A stretch of 64,000 nt of DNA from an uncultured Oribacterium sp. (lineage in GTDB: Bacteria; Bacillota; Clostridia; Lachnospirales; Lachnospiraceae): NCBI GenBank assembly GCA_934270345.1, contig CAKQPT010000005.1:1-64000 (forward strand). Direction: 5' to 3'. A model generated the notes under the pieces. That model saw only the letters and a program-made list of their open reading frames with translations, made no database searches and was not told the DNA's origin. This document shows, one piece after another, positions 1,122 to 55,049 of this stretch (positions are counted from its first letter, which is position 1; each line of letters starts with the position of its first letter). The translations under genes and the position numbers were made by a program.

Positions 1122-1146
1122 GATTTTTCTACAGAACAGAAAAATC
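1122..1146 (-). terminator. Hairpin between sdaAB and sdaAA
   Basis: Nine-base inverted repeat (GATTTTTCT / AGAAAAATC) with a 7-base loop in the sdaAB-sdaAA spacer. The stem is AT-rich and lacks a clear U-tract, so it may be an attenuator or RNA processing site rather than a full terminator. Confidence 0.35.
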
Positions 1147-1171
1147 TCTGCATCCTCATGTCGGGCACCTT

Positions 1172-1840: not shown

Positions 1841-2165
1841 AACTTCACTGCTCTCCTTTGATTCTGAAATCGTATCGGACAGCGGAAACTGCCAGAAGCC
1901 GGACCGGACATACATGCCTGCTCTGACCTCTGACAGCTCCCCTTGCTATCTTCTATATATAAATCATTTTAATAGCAATCACGTTGCATAACAAGCTGCA
2001 AAAGCGCAAAAAGTCACGAAATCGCGTATATGCTCTTTATTTTACCGATAAAATAAATTTATATTTCGCTTGTTTCAGAGCGCCGGCTCACATATAATAA
2101 ACAGAGACTTTTCAGCCAAGGGAGCCCCGGAGGACCGGCAACAGAAGCCATACGGAGAGTTCGTG

Positions 2166-2301
2166 TAAAATCAAGCCAGGTTCCCTTAGCGGCACTTGGT
2201 ACATTTTTCCTTAGCACCCTCTGCAACGCCGAGTTTTCATAAAGAAAACTCAGCGATTGCAGAGGGCCTAGTGCCGCTTAGGGGTCCTGGCTTAGATTTT
2301 A
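2166..2301 (+). repeat. 136-nt nested inverted repeat in the LysR leader / sdaAB upstream region
   Basis: The whole stretch folds on itself. Outer arms TAAAATCAAGCCAGG (2166-2180) pair with CCTGGCTTAGATTTTA (2286-2301) with one bulge. Next pair TTAGCGGCACT and AGTGCCGCTTAGG, then CCCTCTGCAA and TTGCAGAGGG, then GAGTTTTC and GAAAACTC around the apical ATAAA. Terminal inverted repeats of about 31 bp without an ORF look like a MITE. The alternative is a structured leader of the LysR mRNA. The rest of 1916-2375 shows only AT-rich promoter-like sequence. Confidence 0.75.
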
Positions 2302-2375
2302 CCGATCTCGGAGTACTGTGCTTCTGTTGCCGATCCTCCGGGTCTCTCACTAACCAGCTCAGAAAGGATCCCTTT

Positions 2376-10190: not shown

Positions 10191-10358
10191 TGCATTGTGT
10201 CCCTTCTTTAATGTATTTCGAGCAGTGTGTCCATGGCGAAACGCCCACCGTTTACTGCTAGTTGACACGGCCGTTCTGTCGGAAAAGCCAGGACAGAGAC
10301 GGTACTTTGACTCTATTGATACCTTCTAGAATATCATAAATCGCGCGGGTTTTACACT

Positions 10359-11387: not shown

Positions 11388-11411
11388 TGGATTCTCCTTT
11401 TTTCTTCACTG

Positions 11412-11539
11412 TAGGCATGTTCGGACTCAAAATTAGGCATCGTGCCTGTTTTTTCTTCTGTTTTTGTAGGCATGACAGCCGAATAAGCATTCCACCATGC
11501 CTACAGATGGTACCGAATATGGTCCATTTTCGTAGGCAT
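11412..11539. repeat. Cluster of TAGGCAT words between yjjI and yjjW
   Basis: TAGGCAT occurs at 11412, 11434, 11467 and 11533, and inverted (ATGCCTA) at 11497; AGGCATCGTGCCT at 11435 is itself a small palindrome. Five copies in 128 bases upstream of yjjW suggest a protein-binding array or a decayed tandem repeat. Confidence 0.5.
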
Positions 11540-11588
11540 ATTTCCATTTTAAAGCGCTTACAGTGCCTGTCTTTCATCAAAATACAAC

Positions 11589-11622
11589 GAGGAGATCAGG
11601 CCTTTGCTGGTCTGCTCTCCTC
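11589..11622 (-). terminator. Terminator of yjjI
   Basis: GAGGAGA...TCTCCTC stem with further imperfect pairing inside, followed on the minus strand by TTGTATTTTG, 30 bases after the yjjI stop. It may partly separate yjjI from yjjW. Confidence 0.65.
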
Positions 11623-11652
11623 GCTGTGTAGATGTGTTTCACGAATGACGTA

Positions 11653-13200
11653 TCAGCGGACTTTTCGCTCCATGATGTGGCAGTTCTGCTTCGCGCCGAG
11701 GCCGAGGGCGGTGGTGTCGTGCTTGACGTTCTGGCCCTGCTCGAGCTTCTCGATCTCGGACTTCTTTACGAGGTAGCCGGTGACGCGGATGACGTCAGAG
11801 TCGCTCGCGTAGAAGCTTAAGTAGCGGAGGTTCTGCCGGAAGGAGCCCTTGATGATATCGAGGACGTAGTCCGGGTTCTTGTGCACGGTCATGTCGATCG
11901 GGAAGATGTCGCCGGTGCCGGACGGGAAGTAGTGGTGGAAGTTCGACAGAATCATGAGCTGATCCACCAGGTTCGCCGGCTCCTCGCCGATCGGGATGCG
12001 GGTGCCCGGGGTGACATTCACGTCGGAGGCGATGCCGACCTGCGCGTGCAGGAGGAAGTGGCCGCCGGTCGCTTCACAGTACGGGTTGAAGTGGTGATCG
12101 TTGAAGTCCTTGATCACGTCCATGATCCGCACGCCGAGCTTCGTCGCTTCGTCATCACGGCCGAAGCGCCACTCCGGGTGGCCCTCCTTCTCCAGCAGGA
12201 TGTCGACGGCGTCTGCGAGGCCGACGAGACCGAACATCGCGCTGAAGAGATCGCGGCGGATGAGGCCCTCCTTCGCGAGGAAGTTATTCTCGAAGAAGCC
12301 GGACTCCTCCACGATGAAGCGGATACGCTCGTCCATGTAGCGTGCCTGGATGTCCATCACGTACGGGAGCTGGTTCTGCAGGAAGTCCTCGATGTTCTTC
12401 GCGCGCTTCGCGATATTGCCGAGGATGAGGCGGACGAGGGTGTAGGAACCGCCGCCGAACTTGAGACCGTTGTAGCAGGAAGCGATAACGTAATCCTGTC
12501 CGAGCTCGGACTTGAACATCGCGTGGTTGCCGAAGGACGGCTTCGCCGAGGCGAGCGCTGCCCTTACGCACTCCAGCGCGAAGTCATCTGGGGTCTCCGC
12601 TTCGTCGTACTTCATCGTGATGTTCGGTACGGCATCCCGTGTCGCTTCGATCGCCTTCAGGATGAGCCGGCCGGCCTTCGTGTCGCGCGGGCCGATGTTG
12701 CCGTGGGAGAAGGAATCGAGGATCGTACGGTCCATATTGATGAAGAACAGGGTGATCAGCTTCTGCGCGAGTGCCTCATCCATGTCCTGTACGAACGGGT
12801 CGAGGAGCTCATCGAGCTGTCCCACGTAGACCGGGAAATTCGTTACGGACGGAACATGACGATAGATGATTTCGAGTGCATTGATCGCCTCGAAGAGGTC
12901 CTTCGGCGGCTCAAGGTTCAGGAAACGGGAGCCCTCCTTCATGAACTTCTCGTAATTCGGGATGATGTAGCGCGGGCGTAGCGGTGCGTGGCCCTCGCTG
13001 AGATCGCAGATGCACTGACGGTCGATCGGCTGGTTCAGGAGCTCATCGAGTCCCTCCGGAAGGTTCAGCACCTCCAGCAGGGAATCCGCCTGATTCGCCA
13101 TCGTCGCCACCTTCTGCTCGTGCGTCAGGGTCGGGGACTTCACGGTCTCCAGCATCGCCTCGCGTGTCTGGTTTACACGCTCCATGGAAATATCTCTCAT
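11653..13200 (-). CDS. yjjI: YjjI-family glycine-radical enzyme
   Basis: 515-residue member of the YjjI (DUF3029) glycine-radical family, whose substrate is not established. The C-terminal radical loop is visible: VIRVTGYLVKKSEIEKLEQ, with the Gly of RVTGY as the expected radical site. The active-site region near residue 245-275 has FGNHAMFKSELGQDYVIASC, with a candidate catalytic Cys. The start at 13200 (MRDISMERVNQTRE) has GAGGT 7 bases upstream; the longer ORF adds 16 unlikely residues. Paired with its activase YjjW downstream. It lies between a nucleoside transporter and that transporter's probable binding protein, which hints at a nucleoside- or sugar-derived substrate; this is only inference. 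Confidence 0.85.
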   Translation of the reverse strand: MRDISMERVNQTREAMLETVKSPTLTHEQKVATMANQADSLLEVLNLPEGLDELLNQPIDRQCICDLSEGHAPLRPRYIIPNYEKFMKEGSRFLNLEPPKDLFEAINALEIIYRHVPSVTNFPVYVGQLDELLDPFVQDMDEALAQKLITLFFINMDRTILDSFSHGNIGPRDTKAGRLILKAIEATRDAVPNITMKYDEAETPDDFALECVRAALASAKPSFGNHAMFKSELGQDYVIASCYNGLKFGGGSYTLVRLILGNIAKRAKNIEDFLQNQLPYVMDIQARYMDERIRFIVEESGFFENNFLAKEGLIRRDLFSAMFGLVGLADAVDILLEKEGHPEWRFGRDDEATKLGVRIMDVIKDFNDHHFNPYCEATGGHFLLHAQVGIASDVNVTPGTRIPIGEEPANLVDQLMILSNFHHYFPSGTGDIFPIDMTVHKNPDYVLDIIKGSFRQNLRYLSFYASDSDVIRVTGYLVKKSEIEKLEQGQNVKHDTTALGLGAKQNCHIMERKVR

Positions 13201-13407
13201 ATAATTACCTCGTATTCTGTATCTTGCCAGCGGACGATCGGATTTCAAAAATCGATAATCATTCGCAATTTCTCTTTATTCTTATATTATACTAGATAGC
13301 GATGAAATTCTATCTTTTTTTGAATAGATTTCTGTCGACTTCAGCAGTTCGTAAACAGTTCAGCTACCCTGACTCTCCTGAGGGAGTTTGCGGATGCATC
13401 CATACAA

Positions 13408-13435
13408 AAACCGGGTGGCGTGTGCCACCCGGTTT
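13408..13435 (-). terminator. Terminator of the BMP lipoprotein gene
   Basis: Perfect 12-bp stem AAACCGGGTGGC / GCCACCCGGTTT with 4-base loop followed by TTTTTG on the minus strand, about 50 bases after the stop. Confidence 0.88.
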
Positions 13436-13486
13436 CGGTTTCATATCGAACGATCGATGATCCGTCGAGCTCGTATGTCTCGAGGA

Positions 13487-14614
13487 TTAGTCGAGCTCGT
13501 AGATGTCGCCGTACTTTGCTTCGAAATCAGCCTTGTTTGCCGGAACGGTGATCTTACCGTCGACGATCTGCTGCTTCACATCCTGAACCTCAGCGAGAAC
13601 AGCCGGGTCGATGTTGTCTGTGGTCGGAGCGAGATCAACACCTGCGTCTGCAAGGGTGTAGGTCTTTACGCCTGGCTGAACAGTGCCCTCTACGGTTGCC
13701 TTCGCTACATCGTATACAGCGTTATCTACACGCTTCATAGCAGATGTGAGAATGGTCTCCGGAGCGATGGAGGACTGATCGGAGTCAACGCCGATTGCCC
13801 AGATGCCGGCTTCCTTACAGCCATCGATGACACCGAGGCCGGTACCACCAGCTGCGTGGAAGATAACGTCTGCGCCCTGTGCAACCATGTTGTTTGCAGC
13901 AGTCTTACCAGCAGCGGTATCTGCGAAGGAGTTTGCGTTGTTCTGGAGAACCTTGCAATCCGGGTTTGCATCTACAGCACCGGCAACGTAGCCGTAACCG
14001 AACTGGTTCATGAGGTCAGTTGCCATACCAAGAACGATACCTACGGTGTTGGTCTTGGTGGTCTTACCTGCTACATAACCTACGAGGTAGGAAGCCTGTG
14101 CCTGCTCGAACATAAGGGAAGTTACGTTGGAAGAATCTGCGAGAGAAGCATCATCAACGATGGCGAACTTCATATCCGGGTTTGCAGCGCTCTCATCCTT
14201 CAGTGCATCTGCAAGTGCGTAGCCGATGCAGATGATCATGTCGTAATCCTCATCGATATAGGTCTCGATGTTTGGCTTGTAATCTGCGTCGGTGTGGGAC
14301 TCGAGGTAAGAAGCCTGGAAGCCGAGCTCGTCTGCTGCCTTGGAAAGGCCTGCCCATGCGGACTGGTTGAAGGAACCGTCGTTTACACCGCCGACATCGG
14401 TTACGATACCGATCTTTACGTCGGAAGCATCCTTGCCGGTAGCCTCTGCGGCTGCTGTGGTCTCAGCGGCTGCTGCCTCTGTCGCTGCCTCAGCTGCGGC
14501 TGCTGTGGTCTCTGCAGATGCTGCTGTAGTCTCTGCTGGCTTGCTGGAACCGCAAGCTGCGAGAGAAGCAACCATGGATGCGGCCATAAATGCTGCAATC
14601 ATTCTCTTTTTCAT
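13487..14614 (-). CDS. BMP-family nucleoside-binding lipoprotein
   Basis: Surface lipoprotein that captures purine nucleosides or similar ligands for an ABC importer. The start at 14614 has AGGAGG 10 bases upstream. The signal peptide MKKRMIAAFMAASMVASLAA ends in lipobox LAAC-GSS. A 40-residue Ala/Glu/Thr linker (about 25-62) follows, then the BMP fold: IGIVTDVGGVNDGSFNQSAW (residues 68-87) is the family signature and VIFHAAGGTGLGVI the ligand loop. It probably serves the NupOPQ-like transporter 3.3 kb downstream on the same strand, although yjjI-yjjW lie between. It has its own promoter and terminator. Confidence 0.9.
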   Translation of the reverse strand: MKKRMIAAFMAASMVASLAACGSSKPAETTAASAETTAAAAEAATEAAAAETTAAAEATGKDASDVKIGIVTDVGGVNDGSFNQSAWAGLSKAADELGFQASYLESHTDADYKPNIETYIDEDYDMIICIGYALADALKDESAANPDMKFAIVDDASLADSSNVTSLMFEQAQASYLVGYVAGKTTKTNTVGIVLGMATDLMNQFGYGYVAGAVDANPDCKVLQNNANSFADTAAGKTAANNMVAQGADVIFHAAGGTGLGVIDGCKEAGIWAIGVDSDQSSIAPETILTSAMKRVDNAVYDVAKATVEGTVQPGVKTYTLADAGVDLAPTTDNIDPAVLAEVQDVKQQIVDGKITVPANKADFEAKYGDIYELD

Positions 14615-14686
14615 AAATACTTTCCTCCTATGTATCGGCCCTGGATGGCCGAAAAACATTTCTCCCGTAATGGGAAACACAGAAAC

Positions 14687-14715
14687 ATTATAAGTGTTTT
14701 ACTATCTGTTTACAA
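14687..14715 (-). promoter_or_regulatory. Sigma-A-type promoter for the BMP lipoprotein gene
   Basis: On the minus strand TTGTAA (14715-14710) and TATAAT (14692-14687) are separated by exactly 17 bases, a near-consensus promoter about 75 bases before the ATG. Confidence 0.7.
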
Positions 14716-14785
14716 GAACGAATACCTGTCATAACCGCCCATGTGCCCAAATTTCATAGAATTTTAAGGAAGTTAAGGGAACGGA

Positions 14786-14878
14786 GGAATAAGCATCGGC
14801 TTATTCCGTAGCGATATCCCACCGGGCTGTGCCCGGTGCCCGCAGGGCTGAGGCTGGCTTTCCTAAGGCCAGCCTCAG
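14786..14878. terminator. Cluster of three hairpins between hydrolase and BMP genes
   Basis: Three consecutive perfect stems: GGAATAAGC (14786-14807 region), CACCGGGC (14820-14838) and CTGAGGCTGGC (14848-14878). The last overlaps the stop codon of the hydrolase gene and probably stabilises or ends its transcript, although no clear U-tract follows. Confidence 0.55.
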
Positions 14879-15741
14879 GGAGCAAAAAACTCGATGATCT
14901 TCTGGATGGCGAGGTCCATGCAGCCTGGGTTGCTGAAGGGGTGGTCGGCGTTTTCGACTTCTACAAGTTCGATGACGTTGTCGTCGCTGAACGTCCGGGA
15001 GACCTCGATCGGGGCCATCTCGTCCTTCGTGCCGTGGATCATGAGGATGGATTCGGCGTAGTCCATGAAGTCGCAGCTGCTGACGTCGTGGGCCCGGAGA
15101 TCATCGAAGAAGTCTTCGGTAAGCTTGATCTTCCGGTCGAAGCCGCGGAGGATCTCCTTGCCCTTCCGGAGCTTGTCCCAATCCTCCGGGGTGACGCCGG
15201 CGGCGATGGAGTCGTACATCTTAATCGCCGGGCAGCGGAAGGCGATGCGTTTGAACGGGTTGTCGCCGTTTTCCGTAAGGTAGTGGTGCTCGCTCTGCCC
15301 GTCACTGCCGTGCTTCGCGGTAGAGCTGGCGGATGCTGCGTGGTGGTCGTCTGCATTGGCCGCGGCACGGTACTGCTGCTCCGCGAGGTAGCGGAGGGTG
15401 ATGTAGGCGCCGAAGCTCGAGGAGTAGTTGTAGACATCCTCGGCGTGCATGGTGTCCCGGACGTAGCGGGTGACGAGGTCGAGATAGGTGCTGCACTCGT
15501 CGAGGATCAGCTTGTTGCGGGCGTCTTTTCCGTGGCAGGGCCAGTCGAAGCAGACGACGCCGTAGCCGTGGTACTTCGTGGTAAGGCGCTCGGCGAACTT
15601 CTCGATGGCTTTGTTGTCCTTGTTGCCGCCGAAGCCGTAGGTCGCGACGACGATGTGCGGCAGATTGTGAAGGTCCTTATTATAGTAGAGCTTGCAGCGG
15701 ATGCTGAAGCCCGATTCATTGATGTCGAAATACTTTTCCAT
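14875..15741 (-). CDS. Alpha/beta hydrolase
   Basis: 288-residue cytosolic serine hydrolase. The nucleophile elbow is YSSSFGAY near residue 107, so the first glycine of GxSxG is replaced by Ser. The acid lies near HGTKDEMAP (about 245) and the histidine in ADHPF (about 270). The N-terminal GFGG loop (about 37) may form the oxyanion hole. Residues about 124-158 (NADDHHAASASSTAKHGSD) are a low-complexity insertion in the cap region and contain the word CATTGGCC at DNA level. The substrate is unknown; it could be an esterase or acyl-CoA-like thioesterase. Confidence 0.75.
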   Translation of the reverse strand: MEKYFDINESGFSIRCKLYYNKDLHNLPHIVVATYGFGGNKDNKAIEKFAERLTTKYHGYGVVCFDWPCHGKDARNKLILDECSTYLDLVTRYVRDTMHAEDVYNYSSSFGAYITLRYLAEQQYRAAANADDHHAASASSTAKHGSDGQSEHHYLTENGDNPFKRIAFRCPAIKMYDSIAAGVTPEDWDKLRKGKEILRGFDRKIKLTEDFFDDLRAHDVSSCDFMDYAESILMIHGTKDEMAPIEVSRTFSDDNVIELVEVENADHPFSNPGCMDLAIQKIIEFFAP

Positions 15742-15783
15742 AGTTCGTGCCTCGAATTTAATTCGTGAAATGGTCTACAGGAA

Positions 15784-15968
15784 GGGGTCAGACCCCACTT
15801 CGTCAGGGGTCAGACCCCGGGGTTCCGGCTGAATCCACGTAGTGAAATGGTCTGCGGGAATGGGGCTGAGCCCGGGGGCAAAAAATGGAGCCCTGATTTC
15901 GGGCTCCATCATAGCACTGGAAATGACTGATTTCCATTCGTAATTTGTAATAGGAAGGGGCTGACCCC
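15784..15968. repeat. REP-like GGGGTCAGACCCC palindromes
   Basis: Palindromes at 15784-15796 and 15806-15818 and a variant GGGGCTGACCCC at 15957-15968. A degraded copy lies near 15862. The words GTGAAATGGTCT at 15775 and 15842 show that a larger unit was duplicated. Same family as elements at 35.4, 41.7, 49.8, 52.6 and 62.6 kb. Confidence 0.75.
15885..15909 (-). terminator. Terminator of the MATE gene
   Basis: ATGGAGCCC / GGGCTCCAT perfect stem with 7-base loop, followed by TTTTTT on the minus strand. Confidence 0.85.
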
Positions 15969-15984
15969 GGGGTCCGGCCACTCG

Positions 15985-17346
15985 TCAGCTCTTCCGACTC
16001 CACCTTCTGAAGAAGTAGAGGGTTTCGAGGATGCAGCAGGTGGTCCAACCGACCGGGTAGCCGAAGCCGACGGTGGCCGGGGTGTTCGCGATGAAGCGGG
16101 TCATGAAGAAGAGGTAGGTCTGGCGGACGGCGACGAAGCTGAGGAGCATGATGATCATCGGGCCGGTGGAGTCGCCGCGGCCGCGGAGGGCGCCGGCGAG
16201 GACGTGGTTCACGCTGTTAAACAGGAGGAAGAACACGTTCTGGCGGAGGAAGAGCGTTCCGAAGCGGATAACCTCCGGGTCCGGGGTGAAGAGGCCGACG
16301 GCTGGCGGGGCGAAGATCCAGAGCGCGACCGCGAGGCCGAAGTTCAGCATGAGGGTCATCACCACCGACGTCACGGTGCCTTCATTGGCCCGCTTCACCT
16401 TCTGGGCGCCGATGTTCTGGGAGACGAAGGTCGTCGAAGCCATGGCCATGCTCTGGATGAAAAGCATGATGAAGGCGTCGAGCTTGTTGTAGCTCGTCCA
16501 GCCGGCCATGCAGGCCGAGCCGAAGTTGTTGATGTAGGACTGGACGAAGACGTTCGAGAACGCGGTGATGACGGACTGGATGCCCGCCGGGAGGCCGACC
16601 GCCAGGATCTGCCGGAGCATCTGCGGGTCGATGTGGCAGTCGTGGAGGGTCAGGCGGTAGACGTCCTTCGTGCGGAGCAGGAGGAGCAGCGTGAGCGCCG
16701 CAGAGATGAACTGCGAGATGATCGTCGCGAGGGCCACGCCGAAGATGCCGAGGTGGAACTGGAGCACGAACAGGAGGTCGAGGGCAATGTTCAGGACGGA
16801 GGTCAGTACCAGGAAGTACAGTGGGCGGCGCGTGTCACCGACCGCACGCAGGATACCGGAGCCGATGTTGTAGATGAGGAGGCCGGCGATGCCCGCGAAG
16901 TAGGTGCGGAGGTAGATGCTGGCGTCCGCCATGACGTCGTCCGGGGTCGCCATGAAGTTCAGCATGAAAGGTACACCGAGGATGCCGATGATGGTGAAGA
17001 GCACGCAGCAGACGAAGGTGGTGGCCATAGTGGTCTCGATGGAATCGTGGAGGCGCTCCATGTTTTTCGCACCGAAATAGCGCCCGATGATGACACCGGC
17101 ACCGATGGAGAAGCCGTTGAAGAAGAACACGGCCATGTTGACGATCATCGTGGTCGCGCCGACCGCCGCGAGGGCCTCGGTGCTGACGTAGTTGCCGACG
17201 ACGATGGAGTCGACGGTGTTGTACAGCATCTGGAAGATGTTGCCGAACATCAGCGGCAACGCGAAGAGCATGATCTCCTTCGCGATGTTGCCCGTCGTCA
17301 TGTCACGGGTGGTGGTTTTTTTCTTTAATGCGGTACTCTGCTCCAT
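15985..17346 (-). CDS. MATE-family efflux transporter
   Basis: About 453-residue inner-membrane antiporter with twelve hydrophobic segments. The family start TTGNIAKEIMLFALPLMFGN (about residue 18) and the mid-protein duplication (ILAVGLPAGIQSVI near 245) are typical of the NorM/DinF-like branch. It exports drugs or metabolites using a Na+ or H+ gradient. The ATG at 17346 has GGAG six bases upstream; ATGs at 17358 and 17382 are alternatives. A palindrome at 17469-17500 upstream is a possible repressor site. Confidence 0.85.
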   Translation of the reverse strand: MEQSTALKKKTTTRDMTTGNIAKEIMLFALPLMFGNIFQMLYNTVDSIVVGNYVSTEALAAVGATTMIVNMAVFFFNGFSIGAGVIIGRYFGAKNMERLHDSIETTMATTFVCCVLFTIIGILGVPFMLNFMATPDDVMADASIYLRTYFAGIAGLLIYNIGSGILRAVGDTRRPLYFLVLTSVLNIALDLLFVLQFHLGIFGVALATIISQFISAALTLLLLLRTKDVYRLTLHDCHIDPQMLRQILAVGLPAGIQSVITAFSNVFVQSYINNFGSACMAGWTSYNKLDAFIMLFIQSMAMASTTFVSQNIGAQKVKRANEGTVTSVVMTLMLNFGLAVALWIFAPPAVGLFTPDPEVIRFGTLFLRQNVFFLLFNSVNHVLAGALRGRGDSTGPMIIMLLSFVAVRQTYLFFMTRFIANTPATVGFGYPVGWTTCCILETLYFFRRWSRKS

Positions 17347-17401
17347 AAATCTCTCCATATATTCAGGTAAACATCCCGCCACGCGCGTCCGAGTGCTCAG
17401 G

Positions 17402-17428
17402 CATCATCTGCGATCACTGCAGATGATG
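17402..17428 (-). promoter_or_regulatory. Palindrome upstream of the MATE gene
   Basis: CATCATCTGC and GCAGATGATG, perfect 10-bp arms around a 7-base spacer, 56 bases upstream of the MATE start. Could be an operator or a leader hairpin. Confidence 0.4.
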
Positions 17429-17468
17429 TCCTGCATGCGCAGGGGCTATGTCTGTTCCAACATAAAAG

Positions 17469-17557: not shown

Positions 17558-20176
17558 TTACAGCTCTTCCGAGAGCTTCAGCGGATCGTTCTCCGACATG
17601 CACTCGCGGAGGGCGCGGATCATGCCGTCCTCATCGACCGGCTTCGCGAGGTGGCGGTTCATGCCGGCGAGGCGGCCGTTGATGATGTCGTCGGAAAAGG
17701 CATTGGCCGACATCGCGATGATCGGAATCACGCGTGCGTCGCGCCGCTTCATGGCACGGATCGCCCGGGTCGCGTCGAGGCCGTTCATGCGCGGCATCAT
17801 GATGTCCATGTAGATCGCGCCGAAGTAATCCGGGGCGGAGTTCTCGAAGATTTCCACCGCCTCTTGGCCGTCCACCGCCGGCGTCACCTCGATGCCGTGG
17901 TTCTCGAGCATGAAGGTCGCGATCTCGCGGTTCAGCTCGTTATCCTCAACCACCAGCGCGCGGATACCCTCCACTGGGATCTCGTCGAAGTTCTGTCCCT
18001 CCGGATGAATCGCGTTCTGCTCGCCGATGGCGAACGGGAGCTCGATCATGAGCTTCGTGCCGACGCCGAGCGTGCTCTCGATCTTCATCCGGCCGCCCAT
18101 GCGCTCGACGAGCTGCTTCGTGATCGCGAGGCCGAGGCCGGCACCCTGGTACTGCGTCCGGCTCGTCTCCGTCTCCTGCGTGAACGCCATGCCGACGCGG
18201 TGCAGCGTCTCCTCGCTCATGCCGCAGCCCTGGTCCTCACAGTAGAAGCGGAACACCGTTTTCTGCGGTACAGCGCCCGAGGCCAATGTCTCTGCCGTGG
18301 CGCTCGTCACTTCCCGTGCCAGATCGGCGGCGGAAGCGCCCGAAGCCGGGCTGTTCTGCGAAGTGACGACACTGGTGGCGGAAGCATTGCCCGAGGCCGG
18401 GGTGTCCGAGGCCACTTCCTCGCCCCAGACGCGCACGGTGGTGCCCGGCTCGCTGAACTTGATGGCGTTGTCCGTGATGTTCGTCAGGATGCGGGTCAGG
18501 TAGACCGGATTTCCACGCAGGGCCGGGTGCCGGATGTCGCCGCGATTCCAGTCGATCTGATACTGTACGCCCTTTTTCTCCGCCTTCGCCTGCGCCTGCT
18601 GGTTCAGTCGAACGAGCAGATCGACGAGATCGAAGTCGAGCTCACGCTCCTCGATCGTGCCGCTCGCAAGCTTGTTCATATCAAGGATGTCGTTCACGAG
18701 GGACACGAGGTACTGCAGGGTCTCGCGTTCCTTCGACCGGATCTTCGTCAGCATCTCGAGGTCTCTCGGGTACTGCTCGGCGAGGTTCACGAGTCCGATG
18801 ACGCCGTTCAGCGGTGTCCGGATGTCGTGACTCATGTTCGACAGGAAGCGGGCCTTCAGCTCGCCTTCCCGCTTCGCCGCATCTGCCTGGTAGACGAGGT
18901 CGAGCTCACGGCGCTTCACATCACTGATGCTTCGCACGGTCGCCAGCACGTTGGTGACGCGCCCCGTCTCATCCCGCTTCTTCACGAGGAAGCAGAAGCG
19001 ATGCCAGTTACCATCCACCATCTTATACTCGGTATCGAGGATGTCGTCGTGCGCCATCCGCTCTGGAAGGTTCGAGAGGTCCATGAACTTCTTCACCGCT
19101 TCACGGTACTCCGGAGCCACCGTCTGATCACAAGCTTTCCGGAGGGCTGCCGATGCCGTCTTCTCCGACTGCACGATGGCCTCTGCATAGCCACCGATGC
19201 TGATCTTCTTTAAACGATCCTGCACGAGGTCGATGCGCACGATGGTCGTGTAGGCCTTCGCGATCGCCGAGATGATCTCATAGCGAAGCTGCGCCTCGTC
19301 GAGCGCCGTCTTCAGCTCCTGCTGTACCGCCTTTTCCCGCTCCATGATCGGGTCAATGCAGCGGTAGCCGATCAGCGCGTACATCTGTCCCTGCGCATCA
19401 TGCGTCCGGACGATCTGCGCCTCGAAGAAACGCTGCCCGGTCGACGTCGGCATACTCTCGTAGTGTCCAGTCACACGCGGGTGCTCCGACAGCATCTTCC
19501 GGATATTCTCCACACGAAGCCATGACCGGAGTGCTTCCCGCGCCTCCGGATAGAGATAGGCCTCCACATAGTGATCCGTAAATTCATCGTAACTGGCGTA
19601 ATTCTGGCCCATCAGACGACTCGCATTGCTGCCGGATGCGAGATGCAGGATGCTGAACGCACCGGTGTCGACATTGACCTGATATACAGCGGTGTAGTCG
19701 GTACAGAGCTGGTCCAGCACCTTCTTCTCGTCCGCGAGCTGCTGGTACATCTCCTGCAGCTGCTGGTTCTGGCGCTCCTTCTCGATGATCTCCTGCTGAA
19801 TGTTGTAGAGAATGCACATGCAGTAGCCGGGCTTGCCGGTCGGCAGCGCCTCGATGCGGAGGTAGGTGCCGGTCCGCTGCGATACGATGTCGAACTCCTG
19901 GTAGCTGTCCTCGTATGCTGCCCGGTAGTAGTACGGCAGCCACTCGCGGCTGCTGCCCGGACGCAGCTCGAAGTAGCTCTTTCCGCGAAGCTCCTCCGGC
20001 GTCGTGCCCTCTGCCCGCGCCAGCGCAGGATTACAGTAGTCGAAGCACCAGTCGTACGGCGCCCCGGCCTCGTTCAGCAGCACATGAATCACACAGATTC
20101 CGTGGGGACTGCGGTCGTTGATGTCTATATTCCAGAGCTGACGCTCATCTGTCGTTTCTGCTCGCTTATTTTCCAT
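17558..20176 (-). CDS. Hybrid sensor histidine kinase / response regulator with PAS-like sensors
   Basis: 872-residue cytosolic hybrid kinase without obvious membrane segments. Order: two or three PAS-like regions (about 1-430, e.g. GICVIHVLLNEAGAP), HisKA with FLSNMSHDIRTPLNG (phospho-His about 450), HATPase with N box NITDNAIKFS (about 570), G1 box EDQGCGMS (about 645) and GLAITKQLVERMGG, then a receiver domain with phospho-Asp in YMDIMMP (about 790) and the conserved Lys in AKPVDED. Residues about 585-637, between the N and G1 boxes, are a 50-residue Ala/Ser/Thr insertion whose DNA carries two opposed copies of a dispersed repeat. No output domain: the signal must pass to another partner. 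Confidence 0.85.
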   Translation of the reverse strand: MENKRAETTDERQLWNIDINDRSPHGICVIHVLLNEAGAPYDWCFDYCNPALARAEGTTPEELRGKSYFELRPGSSREWLPYYYRAAYEDSYQEFDIVSQRTGTYLRIEALPTGKPGYCMCILYNIQQEIIEKERQNQQLQEMYQQLADEKKVLDQLCTDYTAVYQVNVDTGAFSILHLASGSNASRLMGQNYASYDEFTDHYVEAYLYPEAREALRSWLRVENIRKMLSEHPRVTGHYESMPTSTGQRFFEAQIVRTHDAQGQMYALIGYRCIDPIMEREKAVQQELKTALDEAQLRYEIISAIAKAYTTIVRIDLVQDRLKKISIGGYAEAIVQSEKTASAALRKACDQTVAPEYREAVKKFMDLSNLPERMAHDDILDTEYKMVDGNWHRFCFLVKKRDETGRVTNVLATVRSISDVKRRELDLVYQADAAKREGELKARFLSNMSHDIRTPLNGVIGLVNLAEQYPRDLEMLTKIRSKERETLQYLVSLVNDILDMNKLASGTIEERELDFDLVDLLVRLNQQAQAKAEKKGVQYQIDWNRGDIRHPALRGNPVYLTRILTNITDNAIKFSEPGTTVRVWGEEVASDTPASGNASATSVVTSQNSPASGASAADLAREVTSATAETLASGAVPQKTVFRFYCEDQGCGMSEETLHRVGMAFTQETETSRTQYQGAGLGLAITKQLVERMGGRMKIESTLGVGTKLMIELPFAIGEQNAIHPEGQNFDEIPVEGIRALVVEDNELNREIATFMLENHGIEVTPAVDGQEAVEIFENSAPDYFGAIYMDIMMPRMNGLDATRAIRAMKRRDARVIPIIAMSANAFSDDIINGRLAGMNRHLAKPVDEDGMIRALRECMSENDPLKLSEEL
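18282..18400. repeat. Two opposed copies of the GCATTGGCC repeat inside the hybrid kinase gene
   Basis: One copy reads on the minus strand (GAAGTGACGAGC...GAGACATTGGCC, 18320-18282). The other reads on the plus strand (CTGTTCTGCGAAGTGACGAC...GAAGCATTGCCC, 18351-18391). The plus-strand copy matches the methyltransferase-relic segment at 40151-40106 (CTGTTCTGCGACATGACAGA...GAAGCATTGGCC). Both lie in frame within the kinase ATPase domain. Confidence 0.7.
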
Positions 20177-20284
20177 CGTAGTTTCCTCTGCTCTGGTTAC
20201 GAAGTTTCATGAGTAGATAATAAAATACAGAGAAATGCGTGTCAAATGTTGCCGATTTTTTAAGAATATAGACAGAATTACATC

Positions 20285-22153
20285 TTATCCTGCGTACATG
20301 ATGCCTTCGAAGAGGCTGTCTTCTTCGACGCCGTTCACGTGGTGCGGCCAGCCGTCGGAGTGATCGATATGGACGCGGTAGATCGGCTTCGTGAGGTCGA
20401 TGTGGTCAGTACTGCGATCCGCGATCTGGAAGTACTTCCACTCGCTTTCATCGTTGATTCCGAGGGCCGATGCGTCGATCGTCTGGAGATCCACGAAGCT
20501 CTCGCCATCGGTGCGCATATCGAAGAGGTAGGTGCCGGCCGGAACGGTCTTCGTACCGGTCTTCTTTCCGCTCGCGTCGACGACGTCGAGCTTCAGATCC
20601 TTTTTCGCGCGGATGGCGAAGCTGGTTAAAATCGTATAGAGCTCGTCATTCGCTGCCGGATAGCCATCGGCACCGACATGGCAGGAGCGATAGCCGTTCG
20701 TCGTTCCGAGGACTTCGAGACGACGTGAAAGCGAGATGTCGGCAGGATCCGTGAACGCCGGTCCACGGAGACAGCTCGTATCATAGCTGTCACCCTCGTT
20801 CCAGGTATAGTCCACGCCACCCAGGCCTGCATTTTCGGTGCGGCTTTCATCGAGGCTCTTCGTATCCACATCCACGACCTCCAGCATCGAATAGTCATTT
20901 TCGGCAGACGAGAAGGTATAGAGGTAGTGCTTTCCGCCGGCAACCACGATATAGCTGTTGGAAGAGTAGCTGTAGCCCTCCGGGCGGATGCGGGTGTTGC
21001 CGATCACGTACTCCCGGGCGTAGCTTCCGTACTCGTCGTTGTAGTCGAAGTCCACGTCGATTGACACACGCTTCCCGCCGCCTGCATTGGCCTCATACGA
21101 ACGGGCCGGGAGCAGCGGAATGACGTACTCCGCACAGGTGTCGAGGTACTTCGCGGTGAAGAGCTCCGGCGCCTCGTCGAAGTAAATGCTGACTTCCTGC
21201 GCACCATCCGCGTAGGTGCCGAGGACGTACGGCGCGAAGAAAAGGGTAATGCTTTCGGAATCCATGATCCATGGCGTGCTCGCATACTCCTCATCCCCGA
21301 GGGAGCTGAGATACTCGCCTGCGTTCGTCAGCATATACGAGTCGTTCGCATACTTCTCTTCGAACTTGTCACGCACGAGCCCGATGAATTTGTCCTTCTT
21401 CGACACGACATCGGAGAGCTTCAGCTCCCGGCCGCTCGCCGCATCATAGTTCAGCCCATAGCTGTAGTAGTAACCGTGCGCGCCGCCATGATAATCCTCG
21501 AAGTTGCAGAGTACGCTCACGATCCGGGAATCCGCGCGCATCACATGCGGCTTCACGCTCTCACTCATATGGCCCTCGTACTCGCTCCAGTCGGCGGTCA
21601 GCTCCTGGTACTCCGTGGAGAGATCCGCGATCGACTTCTGTGCGTGGGCAGTTTCGTCCTTCGCCGCCTGCACGAGGGCACGCTGGAGCGCCGGATACTG
21701 CTTCGCCGTCTCTGCATCCAGCTCGAGCGTGAAGTAGTCGCACTGCGCCATCGTCGCATAGCTGTCCGGCTTCGTCGCCGACAGACTGTACTCCGCTACC
21801 GTGAGCGGAATGTGCTGCACGCCCTGCTCATCGCCGGAAGCGCCTGTTCCGTTGCCGGAAGCATCTGTGCCGGTACCGTCCTGTTTTCCTGCGGCGTCGC
21901 CCGACGCATCCTGCCCATTTCCGGAAGCATCGTTCCCGCTGCCCGGGGTCTTTCCCGTGCTGTCGCCCGCTGCATCCTGCCCGTTTTTCGACGCATCCTC
22001 ATCCGCGCCCGGGGTCTTCCCTGTCGCATCCGTCGCCTCGACTGCCGTCGGCCCTTCCGTCGCGGTCGGATTCTTCTTCGATCCTGAACATGCCGGCAGT
22101 GAAATCGCCATCATCATAAGCCCCAGCCCGAAGGCAATGTCTCTCTTTCTCAT
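20285..22153 (-). CDS. Lipoprotein with DUF3298/DUF4163-like domain
   Basis: 622 residues. Signal peptide and lipobox LPAC-SGS at residue 22. A long Gly/Ser/Asp/Gln linker (about 25-115) is built of degenerate repeats around ASGNGQDASGD and TGKTPG. A DUF3298-like region follows (YFTLELDAE near 138; HGYYYSYGLNYDAASGRELKL near 240), known from anti-sigma or cell-envelope proteins such as RsiV. The C-terminal half (about 390-620) is unassigned. It is probably membrane-anchored and faces outward. The RBS GGGAGGTGA is part of a 60-bp tandem repeat that extends upstream. Confidence 0.7.
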   Translation of the reverse strand: MRKRDIAFGLGLMMMAISLPACSGSKKNPTATEGPTAVEATDATGKTPGADEDASKNGQDAAGDSTGKTPGSGNDASGNGQDASGDAAGKQDGTGTDASGNGTGASGDEQGVQHIPLTVAEYSLSATKPDSYATMAQCDYFTLELDAETAKQYPALQRALVQAAKDETAHAQKSIADLSTEYQELTADWSEYEGHMSESVKPHVMRADSRIVSVLCNFEDYHGGAHGYYYSYGLNYDAASGRELKLSDVVSKKDKFIGLVRDKFEEKYANDSYMLTNAGEYLSSLGDEEYASTPWIMDSESITLFFAPYVLGTYADGAQEVSIYFDEAPELFTAKYLDTCAEYVIPLLPARSYEANAGGGKRVSIDVDFDYNDEYGSYAREYVIGNTRIRPEGYSYSSNSYIVVAGGKHYLYTFSSAENDYSMLEVVDVDTKSLDESRTENAGLGGVDYTWNEGDSYDTSCLRGPAFTDPADISLSRRLEVLGTTNGYRSCHVGADGYPAANDELYTILTSFAIRAKKDLKLDVVDASGKKTGTKTVPAGTYLFDMRTDGESFVDLQTIDASALGINDESEWKYFQIADRSTDHIDLTKPIYRVHIDHSDGWPHHVNGVEEDSLFEGIMYAG

Positions 22154-22156
22154 CCG

Positions 22157-22312
22157 TCACCTCCCGGTGCCTGTATGGCACACTCTTCTGTTGAGGTCCG
22201 CGCCCAGAAGCATGAAGACCTCCCGGTGCCTGCATTGGCACCCCTCACCTGTTGGAAGCCCGCGCCCGGAAGCACAGACCTCCCGGTGCCTGCATTGGCA
22301 CCCTCACGTACA
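22157..22312 (-). repeat. 60-bp tandem repeat containing the lipoprotein gene's RBS
   Basis: The block ACCTCCCGGTGCCTG starts at 22158, 22217 and 22278 (period 59-61). Each unit carries on the minus strand a GTGCC-AATGCA-GGCAC hairpin followed by GGGAGGT. The unit next to the gene provides the real Shine-Dalgarno sequence (GGGAGGTGAC, 5 bases before ATG), so ribosome-binding-like sequences are present three times in the leader. Confidence 0.85.
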
Positions 22313-22845
22313 ATTGTAAAATCTACTTATATCATATCAGATTTAAGTTCATATGTGCGAAATACTGCGGATTTTTCGCCTGTCACGGCGAAAGTATATG
22401 AAAAGTCGCTATTTCTGAAATTTAATATATGTCATAGCGTGGATCTGGGCAGATTCGCAGAATGCAGTATATGAAACTCTTGTATTTTGAAAAAATCATA
22501 TACTTTGAAGTCCGGCAAATGATGGAACGTGGCCTTTAAGTATATTATTTTTTCAAAATCGAGCTTCATCATATAGTTTCTGGTCAAAGAAGCTCTGTCA
22601 TCCTCAAAATCCATATATGAAATTTCTTAAATCGGCAGAAATAATATAGCCACCTGAATCTCCAGCCATGGAGTGTGTTACGGAAGCCTGAAAAAAGGGC
22701 GGTCGCTATCGTGCGGCCGCCCTCGTAAGGCTGAATCTTCTATTAAGGATTATTTCTTGTCAGATGGCGGACTCCACCGGACAGATACAAGTCTCCCACA
22801 AAATCCTGCAAGTCATTTCATCCGATGCACTTCATGATTACTTCA
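22313..22845. other. Gene-free AT-rich stretch with long inverted repeat and terminator
   Basis: No supported gene. From 22313 to about 22650 the base composition is far more AT-rich than the neighbours. It contains a 22-bp inverted repeat (22484-22505 with 22538-22559, one mismatch, arms starting ATTTTGAAAAAAT) and several ATATGAAA words. A minus-strand terminator (AGGGCGGCCGC stem, 22696-22723, then TTTTTT) ends the region. Confidence 0.6.
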
Positions 22846-22991
22846 TCAAATGTAATACTCCATCGGGTAGGTGAGGTATGCGTTCGGGTCGAACTGGTCG
22901 ACGGTGACATAACCTGCCGGCGCATTCAGGATCTGCGGGAGGCGGTTTACGATGGTCGCGTAGGACAGCTCAGCGTCCTCCGTACAGGTTT
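22846..22991 (-). pseudogene. C-terminal fragment of a dehydrogenase-like gene
   Basis: Reading the minus strand from about 22991 to the TGA at 22846 gives an uninterrupted sequence of about 48 codons with protein-like composition (CTEDAELSYATIVNRLP then APAGYVTVDQFDP). It resembles the C-terminus of DapB-like NAD(P) dehydrogenases with the N-x-LP-x-L-x-APAG pattern. It has no start codon and overlaps the 3' end of the AraC regulator in another frame, so it looks like a gene end left after rearrangement. The family call is from memory. Confidence 0.45.
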
Positions 22992-24466
22992 TTCCGATAC
23001 TGCTCCGGTGTCATCCCTTCCACGCGTTTAAAGACCTTCGAGAAATAGGTGGCGTTTTCATAGCCCAGAATATCGGAGACCTGATACACCAGTTTTCCAT
23101 CTTTCAGGAGCTCCTTCGCCCGCTTCATCTTCAGCCGGTTCACATACGGAATAAAGTTTTCATTCATGGTGCTCTTAAAATAGGAGCTGAGGTATGGCTC
23201 CGACACGCCGATGATCTTCGCAACATCCGACAGCTGGATCGGCTTATCGAGGTTCACTTCGATATAGTCGAGGGCGCTCTGGATAATATCCGACTCGGTC
23301 TTTTTCTGACGCGTGAAAAACAGCCGGCTGAACTTCGGCAGAAACTCCATCCACCAGCTCTGCATATCCTTGAAGCTTGTGATGTTTACGATCTTCTGAT
23401 AGTGCTTCCGGCTCTCCTGGACCTCGATTTCCTCGATCGTGCCGCCTAGTGCGGTGGCCTTCTGCGAAAAGCGGCTCAGCATCTCGATCATCAGCTTCTT
23501 CACCAGATTCACGGATACATACGGCGTAGCTTCGATCTGATCAAACATATACCGCAGCGTCGCGCTCATCTCCTTTTCCGAGATTTTCGCGATTCCGTAT
23601 TCCAGCTGCTCCATGCACTGATCCACATCGAAGGACAATGCTTTCTTAATCTCAATCGGTGCCTCCAGCACGACGGTCTGGCTGCTGCACTCATAAAAGC
23701 CATACACCTCGATCGAGTTCGCCATCTGAACGAAGAACTGGTCATCCTGCTGCTCCAGCTGGTACGGCGTGATGCCGATATAACAGCGATTCGTCACAAA
23801 CTGAAAGATGAGCTTCCGAAGCCGGTCAACCTCCGCCTCCGTCGTTTCTTCTTTCAGGAGGAGCAGAAGCTTTCCTTCATAAAAGACCGTCATCAGATTT
23901 CTTCCCAGCTTCTGATAATACTGGCACGCGACGCTCTCCACGATCTTCATATCCGTCATTTCTTCCGAATACTTCCACAGCATATAAAAGCTCAGCAGGT
24001 ACCCCGACATGAAATCTGCCGGAATCTGCTGCAGCTTTTTCTTCATCTGCATGCCGGTCTGCACCGCGGACTGCTGGAGATATGCCGGCTTCTCTACCGG
24101 TGCCTGCAGTACGTTTCGGAGCGACGTGATCAGCTCCTCCTTCGATAATCCGAACTTCCGAATATAGTCGACGGCGCCGAGCATCATGGCTTTCTTCACC
24201 GTATCGAAATCCTCATAGCAACTGACAACGATGGCCTTACATGGCAGGCCCTTCTGTCGTATGATCTGCAGAAGCTCCAGCCCGCTGATTTCCGGGATAT
24301 TCAAGTCAAGAAGAATCAGCTCCGGCTGTTCCTTCTCGATCGTTTTCAGTGCATCCGCACCGTTGCTCGCATCCTCCAGGAGCGTGATGCCCATGGCTTC
24401 CCAGTCGATCAGTGAACGCATCCCTAGTCTGGCCAGCAGCTCATCCTCGACGATCAATGCTTTCAT
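22970..24466 (-). CDS. Response regulator, YesN type with AraC output
   Basis: About 498 residues. The N-terminal receiver (KALIVEDELLARLGMR; phospho-Asp in LILLDLNIPE near residue 54; conserved Lys at YIRKFG) is followed by a long middle region and a C-terminal AraC HTH (about 395-495: DVAKIIGVSEPYLSSYFK and VSDILGYENATYFSKVFKR). It overlaps the kinase gene end by 26 bases, so it is co-translated with its partner. It would activate the upstream glycosidase/ABC genes in response to a sugar. ATG at 24466 (AGGA five bases upstream) is preferred to GTG at 24478. Confidence 0.88.
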   Translation of the reverse strand: MKALIVEDELLARLGMRSLIDWEAMGITLLEDASNGADALKTIEKEQPELILLDLNIPEISGLELLQIIRQKGLPCKAIVVSCYEDFDTVKKAMMLGAVDYIRKFGLSKEELITSLRNVLQAPVEKPAYLQQSAVQTGMQMKKKLQQIPADFMSGYLLSFYMLWKYSEEMTDMKIVESVACQYYQKLGRNLMTVFYEGKLLLLLKEETTEAEVDRLRKLIFQFVTNRCYIGITPYQLEQQDDQFFVQMANSIEVYGFYECSSQTVVLEAPIEIKKALSFDVDQCMEQLEYGIAKISEKEMSATLRYMFDQIEATPYVSVNLVKKLMIEMLSRFSQKATALGGTIEEIEVQESRKHYQKIVNITSFKDMQSWWMEFLPKFSRLFFTRQKKTESDIIQSALDYIEVNLDKPIQLSDVAKIIGVSEPYLSSYFKSTMNENFIPYVNRLKMKRAKELLKDGKLVYQVSDILGYENATYFSKVFKRVEGMTPEQYRKNLYGGR

Positions 24467-33525: not shown

Positions 33526-33620
33526 GACGACGAACTGTCCGGCAGACGACATTGGCCTGCCCAGGACGACGAGCTGTCCGGCAGATGACATTGGCCCACC
33601 CAGGACGATGGGCGGTCCGG
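33526..33620. repeat. 39-bp tandem repeat between LysR and aspA
   Basis: Units begin GACGACGAACTGTCCGG (33526), GACGACGAGCTGTCCGG (33565) and a diverged third (33604). Period is exactly 39 and each full unit contains CATTGGCC. It lies in the aspA/LysR control region; the period of 13 codons resembles coding minisatellites elsewhere in the window, but no gene is evident here. Confidence 0.8.
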
Positions 33621-53535: not shown

Positions 53536-55049
53536 CCGAACTGATCATCAACGAAGCACTGAATACATTTCCATTCCTTTTTGTGGGGTACCTGCCGGCG
53601 CAGGAGAGTCTCCGCTTTTCGAAGCGGCGCACACTTCTCCGCATGGTCCTCTGGGAGTGCGGATATCTATGCATCTTCGGGCTCCTGGTGAAGTTCGGTT
53701 TCCCTGCGGTGTACGTGCAGTACCTCGCGGCCCCGATGTTCCTCGCGCTGATGATGGTGAATTTCCAGACGGATAAATGGATCATCCTCTTCCACTTTAT
53801 TTTTACGCTCGACTATCTGCTGGCGATCCGCGCCGCGACCTTCTTCCTCTGCGAGAACAACATCGCTCTCGATTTTTACAGCTGGCAGGCCGGCCTCGTG
53901 ACGCTGATCATGACGGTCAGCACCCTGATTCCAATGTCTACATTTCTGCACGAGATCCTGAAGACGCTGATGTCCGTCGAGATCCATGATTTCTGGATGA
54001 CGGCCTGGCTGCTTCCGTTCGTCGCGACGACGATGATCCTGCTGCTCACAGGAGACATTCGAAGCGGACATGTCAGCAGTCTCGCGCTGCTCGCCCGTAT
54101 CCTGCTGCTGCTCTGTATGTTCATGCTGAGCCATCTCCTGATCCTCTTTATGAAGAATCTGCAGGAGCAGATCATCGCGAGTGAGCGAAACAAGACCATG
54201 GAGAATCTCCTGCGCGTTCAGACGGAGCAGTTTGAGATGCTGAAGACGCGCATCATGGAGAGCCGGCGTGCCCGCCACGATTTCCGCCACCATCGCATGG
54301 TGCTTCAGGACATGGCGGACCGGAATGATCTCCATGGGATTCAGACCTACCTCGCCGAGTACAACGCGGAGCACCAGGATACGCCGTCGAAGACCTACAG
54401 CAACAACCCGACCGTGAACGCGGTCGTCGCGTACTACGCAGGGCATGCGGAAGCCGCCGGGATTCGCTTCACCGCCCGTGTGCAGCTCCCGGAGCATCTT
54501 CTGATCCCGGACCCGATCTTCTGCGTCCTCCTCGGTAACCTCCTTGAGAACGCCGTCGACGCCTGTAAGACCGAGCTGAGCCGTGGCGCTTTGTCGGGCG
54601 CTGCTTCTGCCGACGCCAATGCCGGCGGACTCATCGCTGAAGCGGGCACTGTTCCGGCCAATGCCGACGGACTCGTCGCTGGGGCGGGCACTGCCGGGGC
54701 TAATGCCGACGGACTCGTCGCTGAGGCGGGCACTGCCGGGGCTGCTGCAGGCGACACAGCGATCGATCCGCGCGCCGGTGTCACCGCTTCCGCAGATGTC
54801 CGTTCCGACCAGGCCATTCGCGTGATCGTGAAGCAGAACGGCGACGCCTGCCTCTCCATCGCGGTCGACAACACCTGCAGCCGGAAGCCGATCTGGGACG
54901 ACGGCGAGCTCGTCTCCACGAAGCACGAGGGCCACGGCGTCGGCACTGTCTCGATCCGCTACATCGCCCAGCGCTACGACGGCGACGCCCGCTTCGAGTG
55001 GCGCGACGGCATCTTCTACGCCTCCGTCATGCTGAATCCGCAGAAGTAA
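53532..55049 (+). CDS. GHKL sensor histidine kinase (AgrC-like)
   Basis: 505 residues. About six membrane helices in residues 10-205, then a dimerisation helix with HDFRHHRMVLQDM (phospho-His near 255) and a GHKL ATPase: N box GNLLENAVDAC (about 335-345) and GVGTVSIRYIAQRYDG (about 475). Residues about 350-422, just after the N box, are a Gly/Ala-rich insertion built of 14-residue repeats (ANADGLVAEAGTAG), encoded by 42-bp DNA repeats at 54615, 54657 and 54699. Kinase partner of the LytTR protein. Confidence 0.87.
   Translation: MTELIINEALNTFPFLFVGYLPAQESLRFSKRRTLLRMVLWECGYLCIFGLLVKFGFPAVYVQYLAAPMFLALMMVNFQTDKWIILFHFIFTLDYLLAIRAATFFLCENNIALDFYSWQAGLVTLIMTVSTLIPMSTFLHEILKTLMSVEIHDFWMTAWLLPFVATTMILLLTGDIRSGHVSSLALLARILLLLCMFMLSHLLILFMKNLQEQIIASERNKTMENLLRVQTEQFEMLKTRIMESRRARHDFRHHRMVLQDMADRNDLHGIQTYLAEYNAEHQDTPSKTYSNNPTVNAVVAYYAGHAEAAGIRFTARVQLPEHLLIPDPIFCVLLGNLLENAVDACKTELSRGALSGAASADANAGGLIAEAGTVPANADGLVAGAGTAGANADGLVAEAGTAGAAAGDTAIDPRAGVTASADVRSDQAIRVIVKQNGDACLSIAVDNTCSRKPIWDDGELVSTKHEGHGVGTVSIRYIAQRYDGDARFEWRDGIFYASVMLNPQK
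54615..54745 (+). repeat. 42-bp in-frame tandem repeat inside the GHKL kinase gene
   Basis: Units start GCCAATGCCGGCGG (54615), GCCAATGCCGACGG (54657) and GCTAATGCCGACGG (54699), period exactly 42. Later parts (GCGGGCACTGCCGGGGCT) repeat almost perfectly, which indicates recent expansion. Confidence 0.9.

What the first reader, a model, noticed from the sequence alone, without database searches (positions are those of the whole stretch)
18250..18420. Hybrid kinase ATPase domain interrupted by an in-frame insertion made of two opposed copies of a dispersed repeat
Between the N box and the G1 box, where a short turn is normal, residues about 585-637 are Ala/Ser/Thr-rich. The DNA holds one repeat copy on each strand. 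The plus-strand copy (CTGTTCTGCGAAGTGACGAC) aligns with a methyltransferase relic 22 kb away. A mobile or recombining repeat landing in frame in a catalytic domain and being kept is unusual.
Basis: partly seen in the sequence, partly recalled or inferred. Interest (0 to 1): 0.72.

Follow-up and report, generated by a model that had tools for sequence, protein, structure and literature searches.

The report
Variable disordered loop in sensor kinase
A bacterial sensor kinase carries an extra, floppy stretch of about 43 amino acids that its wider family lacks and that differs in length between close relatives; it looks like one of many such loops in this lineage, and the 'repeat' in it is best read as a short DNA word scattered over the genome rather than a jumping element.

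Summary
The insertion is real. In the 872-aa hybrid kinase (17558-20176, minus strand) about 43 residues (589-631; 18284-18412) widen the hairpin between N box and G1 box from 30 to 73 residues. It is absent from 30 of 30 other family hits measured (25-28 aa) and 120 of 120 listed homologues of an outgroup orthologue (28 aa). In 118 close homologues the segment has 13 lengths (30-95 aa); six are insert-free and fall among carriers. AlphaFold leaves it disordered between two strands. Its DNA is a weak imperfect palindrome (38 of 63 pairs; 0.9% of codon shuffles score as high) with one exact and one near copy of a dispersed word, core RRCATTGRCC. The word is over-represented in genes against synonymous shuffles (249 vs 46; rank 3 of 13,558 8-mers), and 17 of 18 copies in orthologue pairs with a congener lie in ungapped alignment, which speaks for a DNA word, not a mobile repeat. 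Ala/Ser/Gly/Asp-rich internal segments occur in 108 of 1363 proteins. Best reading: a tolerated hypervariable loop plus a genome-wide DNA word of unknown, possibly uptake-signal-like, role.

The parts
17558..20176 (-). Hybrid sensor histidine kinase, 872 aa (PAS_4, HisKA, HATPase_c, receiver)
   Evidence: ORF; Pfam
18284..18412 (-). In-frame insertion, about 43 aa (residues about 589-631) relative to insert-free alleles; Ala/Ser/Thr/Gly-rich, predicted disordered
   Evidence: homologue segments; residues 591-636 pLDDT <50 between strands 580-588 and 639-648
18274..18399 (.). Imperfect 126-nt palindrome, 38 of 63 pairs complementary
18281..18288 (-). Exact copy of the word CATTGGCC (on the gene strand, within ETLA codons)
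   Evidence: unchanged in G001
18384..18392 (+). Near copy of the word, GCATTGCCC, opposite orientation
18304..18313 (.). One 10-bp arm TCGTCACTTC of the exact inverted repeat (other arm 18360-18369)
15265..15378 (-). Second in-frame insertion of the same kind, up to 38 aa (residues about 122-159) in an alpha/beta hydrolase gene (14875-15741), with the word at 15354
   Evidence: all 10 matching genus genomes other than G001 lack it; Pfam alpha/beta hydrolase; word site
54579..54789 (+). Ala/Gly-rich segment with three 14-aa tandem units in a GHKL sensor (53532-55049), just after its N-box-like NLLENAVDAC
   Evidence: coordinates; tandem copies 54615-54740; Pfam HATPase_c_5 matches only after it; no homologue found in 17 genus genomes, so insertion not proven

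Best explanation
The segment is a lineage-specific, disordered, low-complexity loop insertion at a permissive hairpin turn of the kinase ATPase domain. It was most simply gained once in this lineage and has since been lengthened by in-frame duplication, shortened by deletion between short repeats, and perhaps reshuffled by recombination; the kinase tolerates it because both flanking strands are kept. It belongs to a wider set of Ala/Ser/Thr/Gly/Asp/Asn-rich in-frame segments in conserved proteins of this lineage. The opposed 'repeat copies' are instances of a short DNA word (core RRCATTGRCC) that accumulates where the sequence is free to change. Shown: insertion, absence from the wider family, length polymorphism, predicted disorder, word enrichment at DNA level. 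Inferred: the mutational route, single gain, neutrality, that the word arises by substitution inside the insert too, and why the word is favoured.
For: Hairpin 25-28 aa in 30 of 30 other family hits (29 distinct segments) and 28 aa in 120 of 120 outgroup homologues. 13 length classes, 30-95 aa, in 118 close homologues; insert-free alleles fall among carriers. The two 87-aa alleles differ from the 73-aa ones by the length of one 14-aa imperfect repeat, read by eye. Disordered loop between two predicted strands. Word in genes 60 (low-complexity) + 189 (other) vs 8.4 + 41.6 in synonymous shuffles; CATTGGCC rank 3 of 13,558 8-mers; intergenic 79 vs 6.5 expected; 17 of 18 comparable sites in ungapped alignment with G009. 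Internal 40-aa windows at least 75% ASTGPDN: 108 of 1363 proteins (15.7 in composition shuffles) vs 2 of 269 in G009 and 2 of 111 in E. coli K-12 samples. Insertions or much longer segments in alpha/beta hydrolase, MurB and MtaB.
Against: The 126-nt palindrome with a word near each end (0.9% of codon shuffles) is more order than a random loop would show. The 18 compared word sites include 6 of the variant CATTGACC, are nearly all outside low-complexity segments, and are not polarised (two are identical in G009), so they do not show how the word arose inside inserts. G009 is distant (GC 41% vs 55%). In the 73 G001/G009 pairs no insertion held the word. DNA is held for only two alleles of the insert, so the duplication/deletion route rests on protein sequences.
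Confidence: 0.64

Rival explanations
1. A decayed protein-coding palindromic mobile element (as Rickettsia palindromic elements): a 120-130 bp MITE-like unit with ends GGCCAATG...CATTGGCC inserted in frame and was kept.
For: 126-nt imperfect palindrome in the window allele and a shorter like one in the G001 allele; paired convergent words bound similar peptides in some other genes, e.g. ANADGRTTCASTASIG in an RluA-family protein; convergent pairs of CATTGG within 8-300 bp are 36, divergent 11, same-direction 39.
Against: No full-length second copy: the best match of the segment in G001 outside the kinase is 76% over 55 bp, E 1e-4. With one mismatch allowed and 24-140 bp the counts are 27 convergent, 19 divergent, 22 same. 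Compared word sites lie in ungapped alignment (17 of 18). 236 of 288 low-complexity segments lack the exact word. Five of six insert-free alleles read PQAAAPQKTM like the right flank of carrier P0014, as a deletion would leave.
Confidence: 0.2
2. The loop is functional: its length tunes ATP-lid movement or binds a partner, and length variation is selected.
For: Peptides like NASA-VVT-QD and REVTSA-AETLA recur in many alleles while the middle varies; a GHKL sensor in the window and a G001 kinase (L132) have Ala/Gly-rich segments at the matching place.
Against: Six of 118 homologues do without it; predicted disordered; like segments sit in unrelated enzymes.
Confidence: 0.1
3. Artefact of assembly or gene calling.
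For: The G001 copy has an in-frame TGA and an N run.
Against: 118 homologues carry a readable segment at the same place; ten besides the window's own are 872 aa long at 94-97% identity.
Confidence: 0.02

Closest known systems
Rickettsia palindromic elements (RPE)
   Same: In-frame, tolerated palindromic DNA inside unrelated conserved genes (passage of the review PMC10969869 seen)
   Different: RPEs are described there as ~150-bp elements in defined families; here no full-length second copy was found, and the shared part is an 8-12 bp word
DNA uptake sequence / uptake signal sequence (Neisseriaceae, Pasteurellaceae)
   Same: Short word, many copies, favoured in permissive sites, sometimes as inverted pairs (passages of PMC2397512); here also both strands, genes and spacers
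   Different: Known from Gram-negative groups as far as I recall; here about 325 exact 8-mers in 2.0 Mb with a soft consensus, and no uptake evidence
Low-complexity regions of proteins (for example in Plasmodium; recalled)
   Same: Disordered, length-variable in-frame segments in conserved enzymes
   Different: Bacterial, GC 55%, and here linked to a DNA-level word

Membership tests
Hybrid sensor histidine kinase | HisKA + HATPase_c + receiver domains | tested here: met
   Pfam E 1.1e-12, 6.4e-19, 5.1e-21
RPE / MITE | Multiple similar full-length copies in the genome | tested here: not met
   Best non-orthologous G001 match 76% over 55 bp; the window's own genome is not held
RPE / MITE | Palindromic or terminal inverted repeat structure | tested here: inconclusive
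   38 of 63 pairs; 0.9% (window) and 3.2% (G001 allele) of codon shuffles as good
RPE / MITE | Empty site with target-site duplication | tested here: inconclusive
   Insert-free alleles held only as proteins; they fall among carriers
DNA uptake sequence | Strong genome-wide over-representation not explained by proteins | tested here: met
   249 vs 46 in synonymous shuffles; 79 vs 6.5 intergenic
DNA uptake sequence | Word itself conserved in permissive places | tested here: inconclusive
   10 of 12 aligned window sites identical in G001 vs 75% of all aligned 8-mers
DNA uptake sequence | Competence machinery | tested here: inconclusive
   ComEC family PF03772 in G001 and 15 of 17 genus genomes, but also in 10 of 14 control genomes including E. 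coli; other competence genes not tested
DNA uptake sequence | Sequence-dependent uptake and a receptor | not testable with these tools
   needs a transformation assay

The most novel reading that the evidence does not exclude
RRCATTGRCC is an uptake-signal-like genome word in a Lachnospiraceae lineage, the first I know of in a Gram-positive group, and the lineage's many disordered loop insertions act as its reservoir: recombination after DNA uptake both spreads the word and makes loops such as this kinase's hypervariable.
Probability: 0.15. Interest if true: 0.8.

Novelty: new variant of a known kind. Interest (0 to 1): 0.5.

Why it matters
It points to a bacterium in which conserved enzymes, including a kinase catalytic domain, MurB and a tRNA-modifying enzyme, carry long tolerated low-complexity insertions, a situation better known from malaria parasites (recalled). 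The DNA word that stands out against synonymous shuffling is a concrete, testable lead: uptake signal, protein-binding site or other genome-wide marker.

Tried and rejected
Own-genome search was not possible (window assembly not held). G001 was used instead, 2,012,499 bases of about 2.3 Mb. It is the same or a sister species: 95.2% identity over 27,462 aligned window bases, 20% of sampled 31-mers shared.

A first thought that the kinase stands out as a replaced allele was dropped to a weak hint: it is 89.7% identical to G001 while one flank (6949-17357) is 97.7-98.0%, but the gene on the other side is 93.8% and other stretches are mostly 91.8-98.1%.

G001 versus G009 orthologue comparison for insertions: only 73 usable of 99 pairs; 10 insertions of at least 10 aa in G001 and 6 in G009, none with the word; too small and too distant to decide. 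A loose low-complexity measure (24 aa, 75%) gave 217 of 1363 proteins, but composition shuffles gave 139 and E. coli 9 of 106, so I rely on the stricter 40-aa measure. The 10.5-fold word enrichment inside low-complexity segments is partly a composition effect; the synonymous shuffle is the fair figure. Codon context may explain part: AAT is 76% of Asn in A-N-A against 39% overall, and a like trend is seen in G009.

Orientation of intergenic words relative to the downstream gene (56 with, 27 against) gave no mechanism. The GHKL sensor search in the genus returned nothing, so its insertion is unproven. Rfam at gathering cut-offs found nothing at the kinase. In the listings of paper searches I saw no report of an uptake word in Lachnospiraceae or of this insertion; I saw only the listed titles and abstract starts, and the library lacks most subscription papers. 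I saw passages of PMC10969869 and PMC2397512, no whole paper; one Rickettsia primary paper was not held.

Full report
The finding concerns a hybrid sensor kinase at 17558-20176 on the minus strand, 872 aa, with PAS, HisKA, HATPase_c and receiver domains. Between the N box (NAIKF, residues 570-574) and the G1 box (DQGCGM, from 648) lie 73 residues. In the insert-free alleles of 829 aa the same stretch is 30 residues; the extra 43 residues correspond to about 589-631, window 18284-18412. Pfam aligns HATPase_c through in an insert-free allele but only its later part in the window protein.

Is it an insertion? Yes. Thirty other hits read from genus genomes and one Agathobacter record have 25-28 residues there (29 distinct segments; two more hits were partial and not measured; the one long hit, 68 by that count, is G001's own copy of this kinase). 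All 120 listed homologues of the Agathobacter orthologue (of 1413 hits) have 28: 118 by the first pattern, and two that it mis-anchored were re-read. Among the 120 closest homologues listed (of 4214 hits), 118 could be read and show 13 lengths: 30: 6; 38: 1; 60: 1; 63: 44; 66: 3; 69: 20; 72: 1; 73: 25; 75: 1; 76: 1; 77: 12; 87: 2; 95: 1 (P0030 and P0084 not read). On a quick, midpoint-rooted FastTree built without the loop and without an outgroup, the six insert-free proteins fall among insert carriers, so they are most simply losses or recombinants; branch supports were not examined.

What does it look like? AlphaFold (33-sequence alignment, mean pLDDT 74, pTM 0.38) gives pLDDT below 50 for residues 591-636 between strands 580-588 and 639-648: a widened, floppy hairpin turn. 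The kinase gene is 89.7% identical to the G001 copy, less than one flank (97.7-98.0% over 6949-17357) but not far from the gene on the other side (93.8%), so recombination is only a hint.

The DNA claim. The exact inverted repeat is 10 bp, 46 bp apart. The best ungapped self-complementary stretch is 126 nt, 18274-18399, with 38 of 63 pairs; 0.9% of 1000 codon shuffles and 0.16% of 10,712 genic windows score as high, 3.2% of shuffles for the G001 allele. A profile from seven window seeds, the kinase among them, found 169 matches at E 10 or better in 2.08 Mb (seeds included) against 8 in the reversed sequence; 25 against 0 at E < 0.01. A dispersed motif therefore exists. Its centre is CATTGGCC: 325 copies in 2.01 Mb of G001, 79 of them intergenic against 6.5 expected from trinucleotides.

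What is the motif? Three tests favour a DNA word over an inserted unit. First, in genes it occurs 60 times in low-complexity segments and 189 times elsewhere, against 8.4 (sd 2.3) and 41.6 (sd 6.5) after shuffling synonymous codons within genes. Second, of 13,558 8-mers with at least 40 copies, the ten most over-represented against synonymous shuffles are all pieces of RRRCATTGRCC-like words: AAGCATTG, AGACATTG, CATTGGCC, AGCATTGG, GCATTGGC, CATTGACC, GAGACATT, GAAGCATT, GACATTGG, ACATTGGC. Third, of 18 word sites (12 CATTGGCC, 6 CATTGACC) in orthologue pairs with G009, 17 lie in ungapped blocks; in two cases the local protein is identical and the word differs by codon choice, in two the word itself is shared, and two blocks are poorly alike. 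The third test is unpolarised and speaks mostly of sites outside inserts. GRCATTGRCC occurs 207 times in G001 (9 for the pattern read backwards) and 20-90 times in the other 16 genus genomes (6-33 backwards). Of 12 aligned window sites, 10 are unchanged in G001, against 75% of all aligned 8-mers; the two others belong to a 39-nt tandem-unit difference at 33551.

A class of segments. Internal 40-aa windows at least 75% ASTGPDN occur in 108 of 1363 G001+window proteins (15.7 after shuffling each protein), 2 of 269 in G009 and 2 of 111 in 150 kb of E. coli K-12. Composition alone therefore does not explain them; that each is an insertion is not shown. For four proteins I compared relatives. The kinase is above. 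The alpha/beta hydrolase 2.5 kb away has residues about 122 to 153-159 that all 10 matching genus genomes other than G001 lack (6 of 17 have no match). MurB of G001 has about 40 residues that are missing or shorter in 9 genus genomes where both halves were found; in 5 only the later half was listed; G005 and G014 align through at 69-71%. MtaB has a like segment: 7 genus genomes align through it (G012 from residue 104), 8 break there, and in G004 the halves lie on two contigs. NCBIfam places MurB, MtaB, an RluA-family and another pseudouridine synthase and CDP-glucose dehydratase above its cut-offs; the topoisomerase III, phosphosugar mutase and DltB-like matches are below theirs, though Pfam finds topoisomerase domains. 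These further proteins were picked because they carry the word and were only read by eye. A G001 kinase (L132) and the window's GHKL sensor have Ala/Gly-rich segments beside or inside the ATPase domain.

Mechanism. Best supported: a permissive loop that gained low-complexity sequence and varies by small in-frame duplication, deletion and perhaps recombination (0.64). The word accumulates where little else constrains the sequence; opposed copies follow from its occurrence on both strands. A decayed palindromic element cannot be excluded (0.20), because the palindrome is better than chance. Why the word is favoured is open; published uptake signals behave in part like this (passages of PMC2397512), and ComEC is present, but ComEC is also in most control genomes, and there is no uptake test.

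Verdict.

Noticed in passing
window 20284-22248: The lipoprotein gene next to the kinase is inverted in the G001 locus (L010 6983-8920, 93.8% identity) relative to collinear flanks; no inverted repeat joining the two ends was listed in window 19901-23100.
   Followed up: partly
window 1058-1188 (-): Clostridiales-1 RNA (RF01699, 51.9 bits). Window 1050-1169 is missing at the matching place in G001, and none reached the cut-off in 140 kb of G001 searched.
   Followed up: partly
window 2136-2308, 11402-11592, 14769-14878, 15742-15995, 17358-17463: Spacers differ from G001 by blocks of about 100-250 bp while neighbouring genes are far more alike; some blocks are hairpin-rich, and sequence of the first recurs in a neighbouring G001 spacer.
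   Followed up: partly
window 35362, 49838, 62626 and G001: Palindromic repeat with core GGGTCTGACCC (near copy at 41734): 76 of 78 copies in G001+window are outside my gene calls.
   Followed up: no
window 41616-41762 and 49720-49866: 147-nt repeat, 89% identical, containing a 32-1-32 nt hairpin, next to near copies of the word.
   Followed up: no
window 53532-55049: GHKL sensor with three 14-aa Ala/Gly-rich tandem units just after its N-box-like motif; no homologue found in 17 genus genomes at E 1e-20.
   Followed up: partly
window 33538-33600: 39-nt unit with the CATTGGCC word, one copy more in the window than in G001.
   Followed up: no
L001 3127-3129 and 4030-4129: The G001 copy of the kinase has an in-frame TGA and an N run with a repeated end, so that allele may be broken or misassembled.
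   Followed up: no
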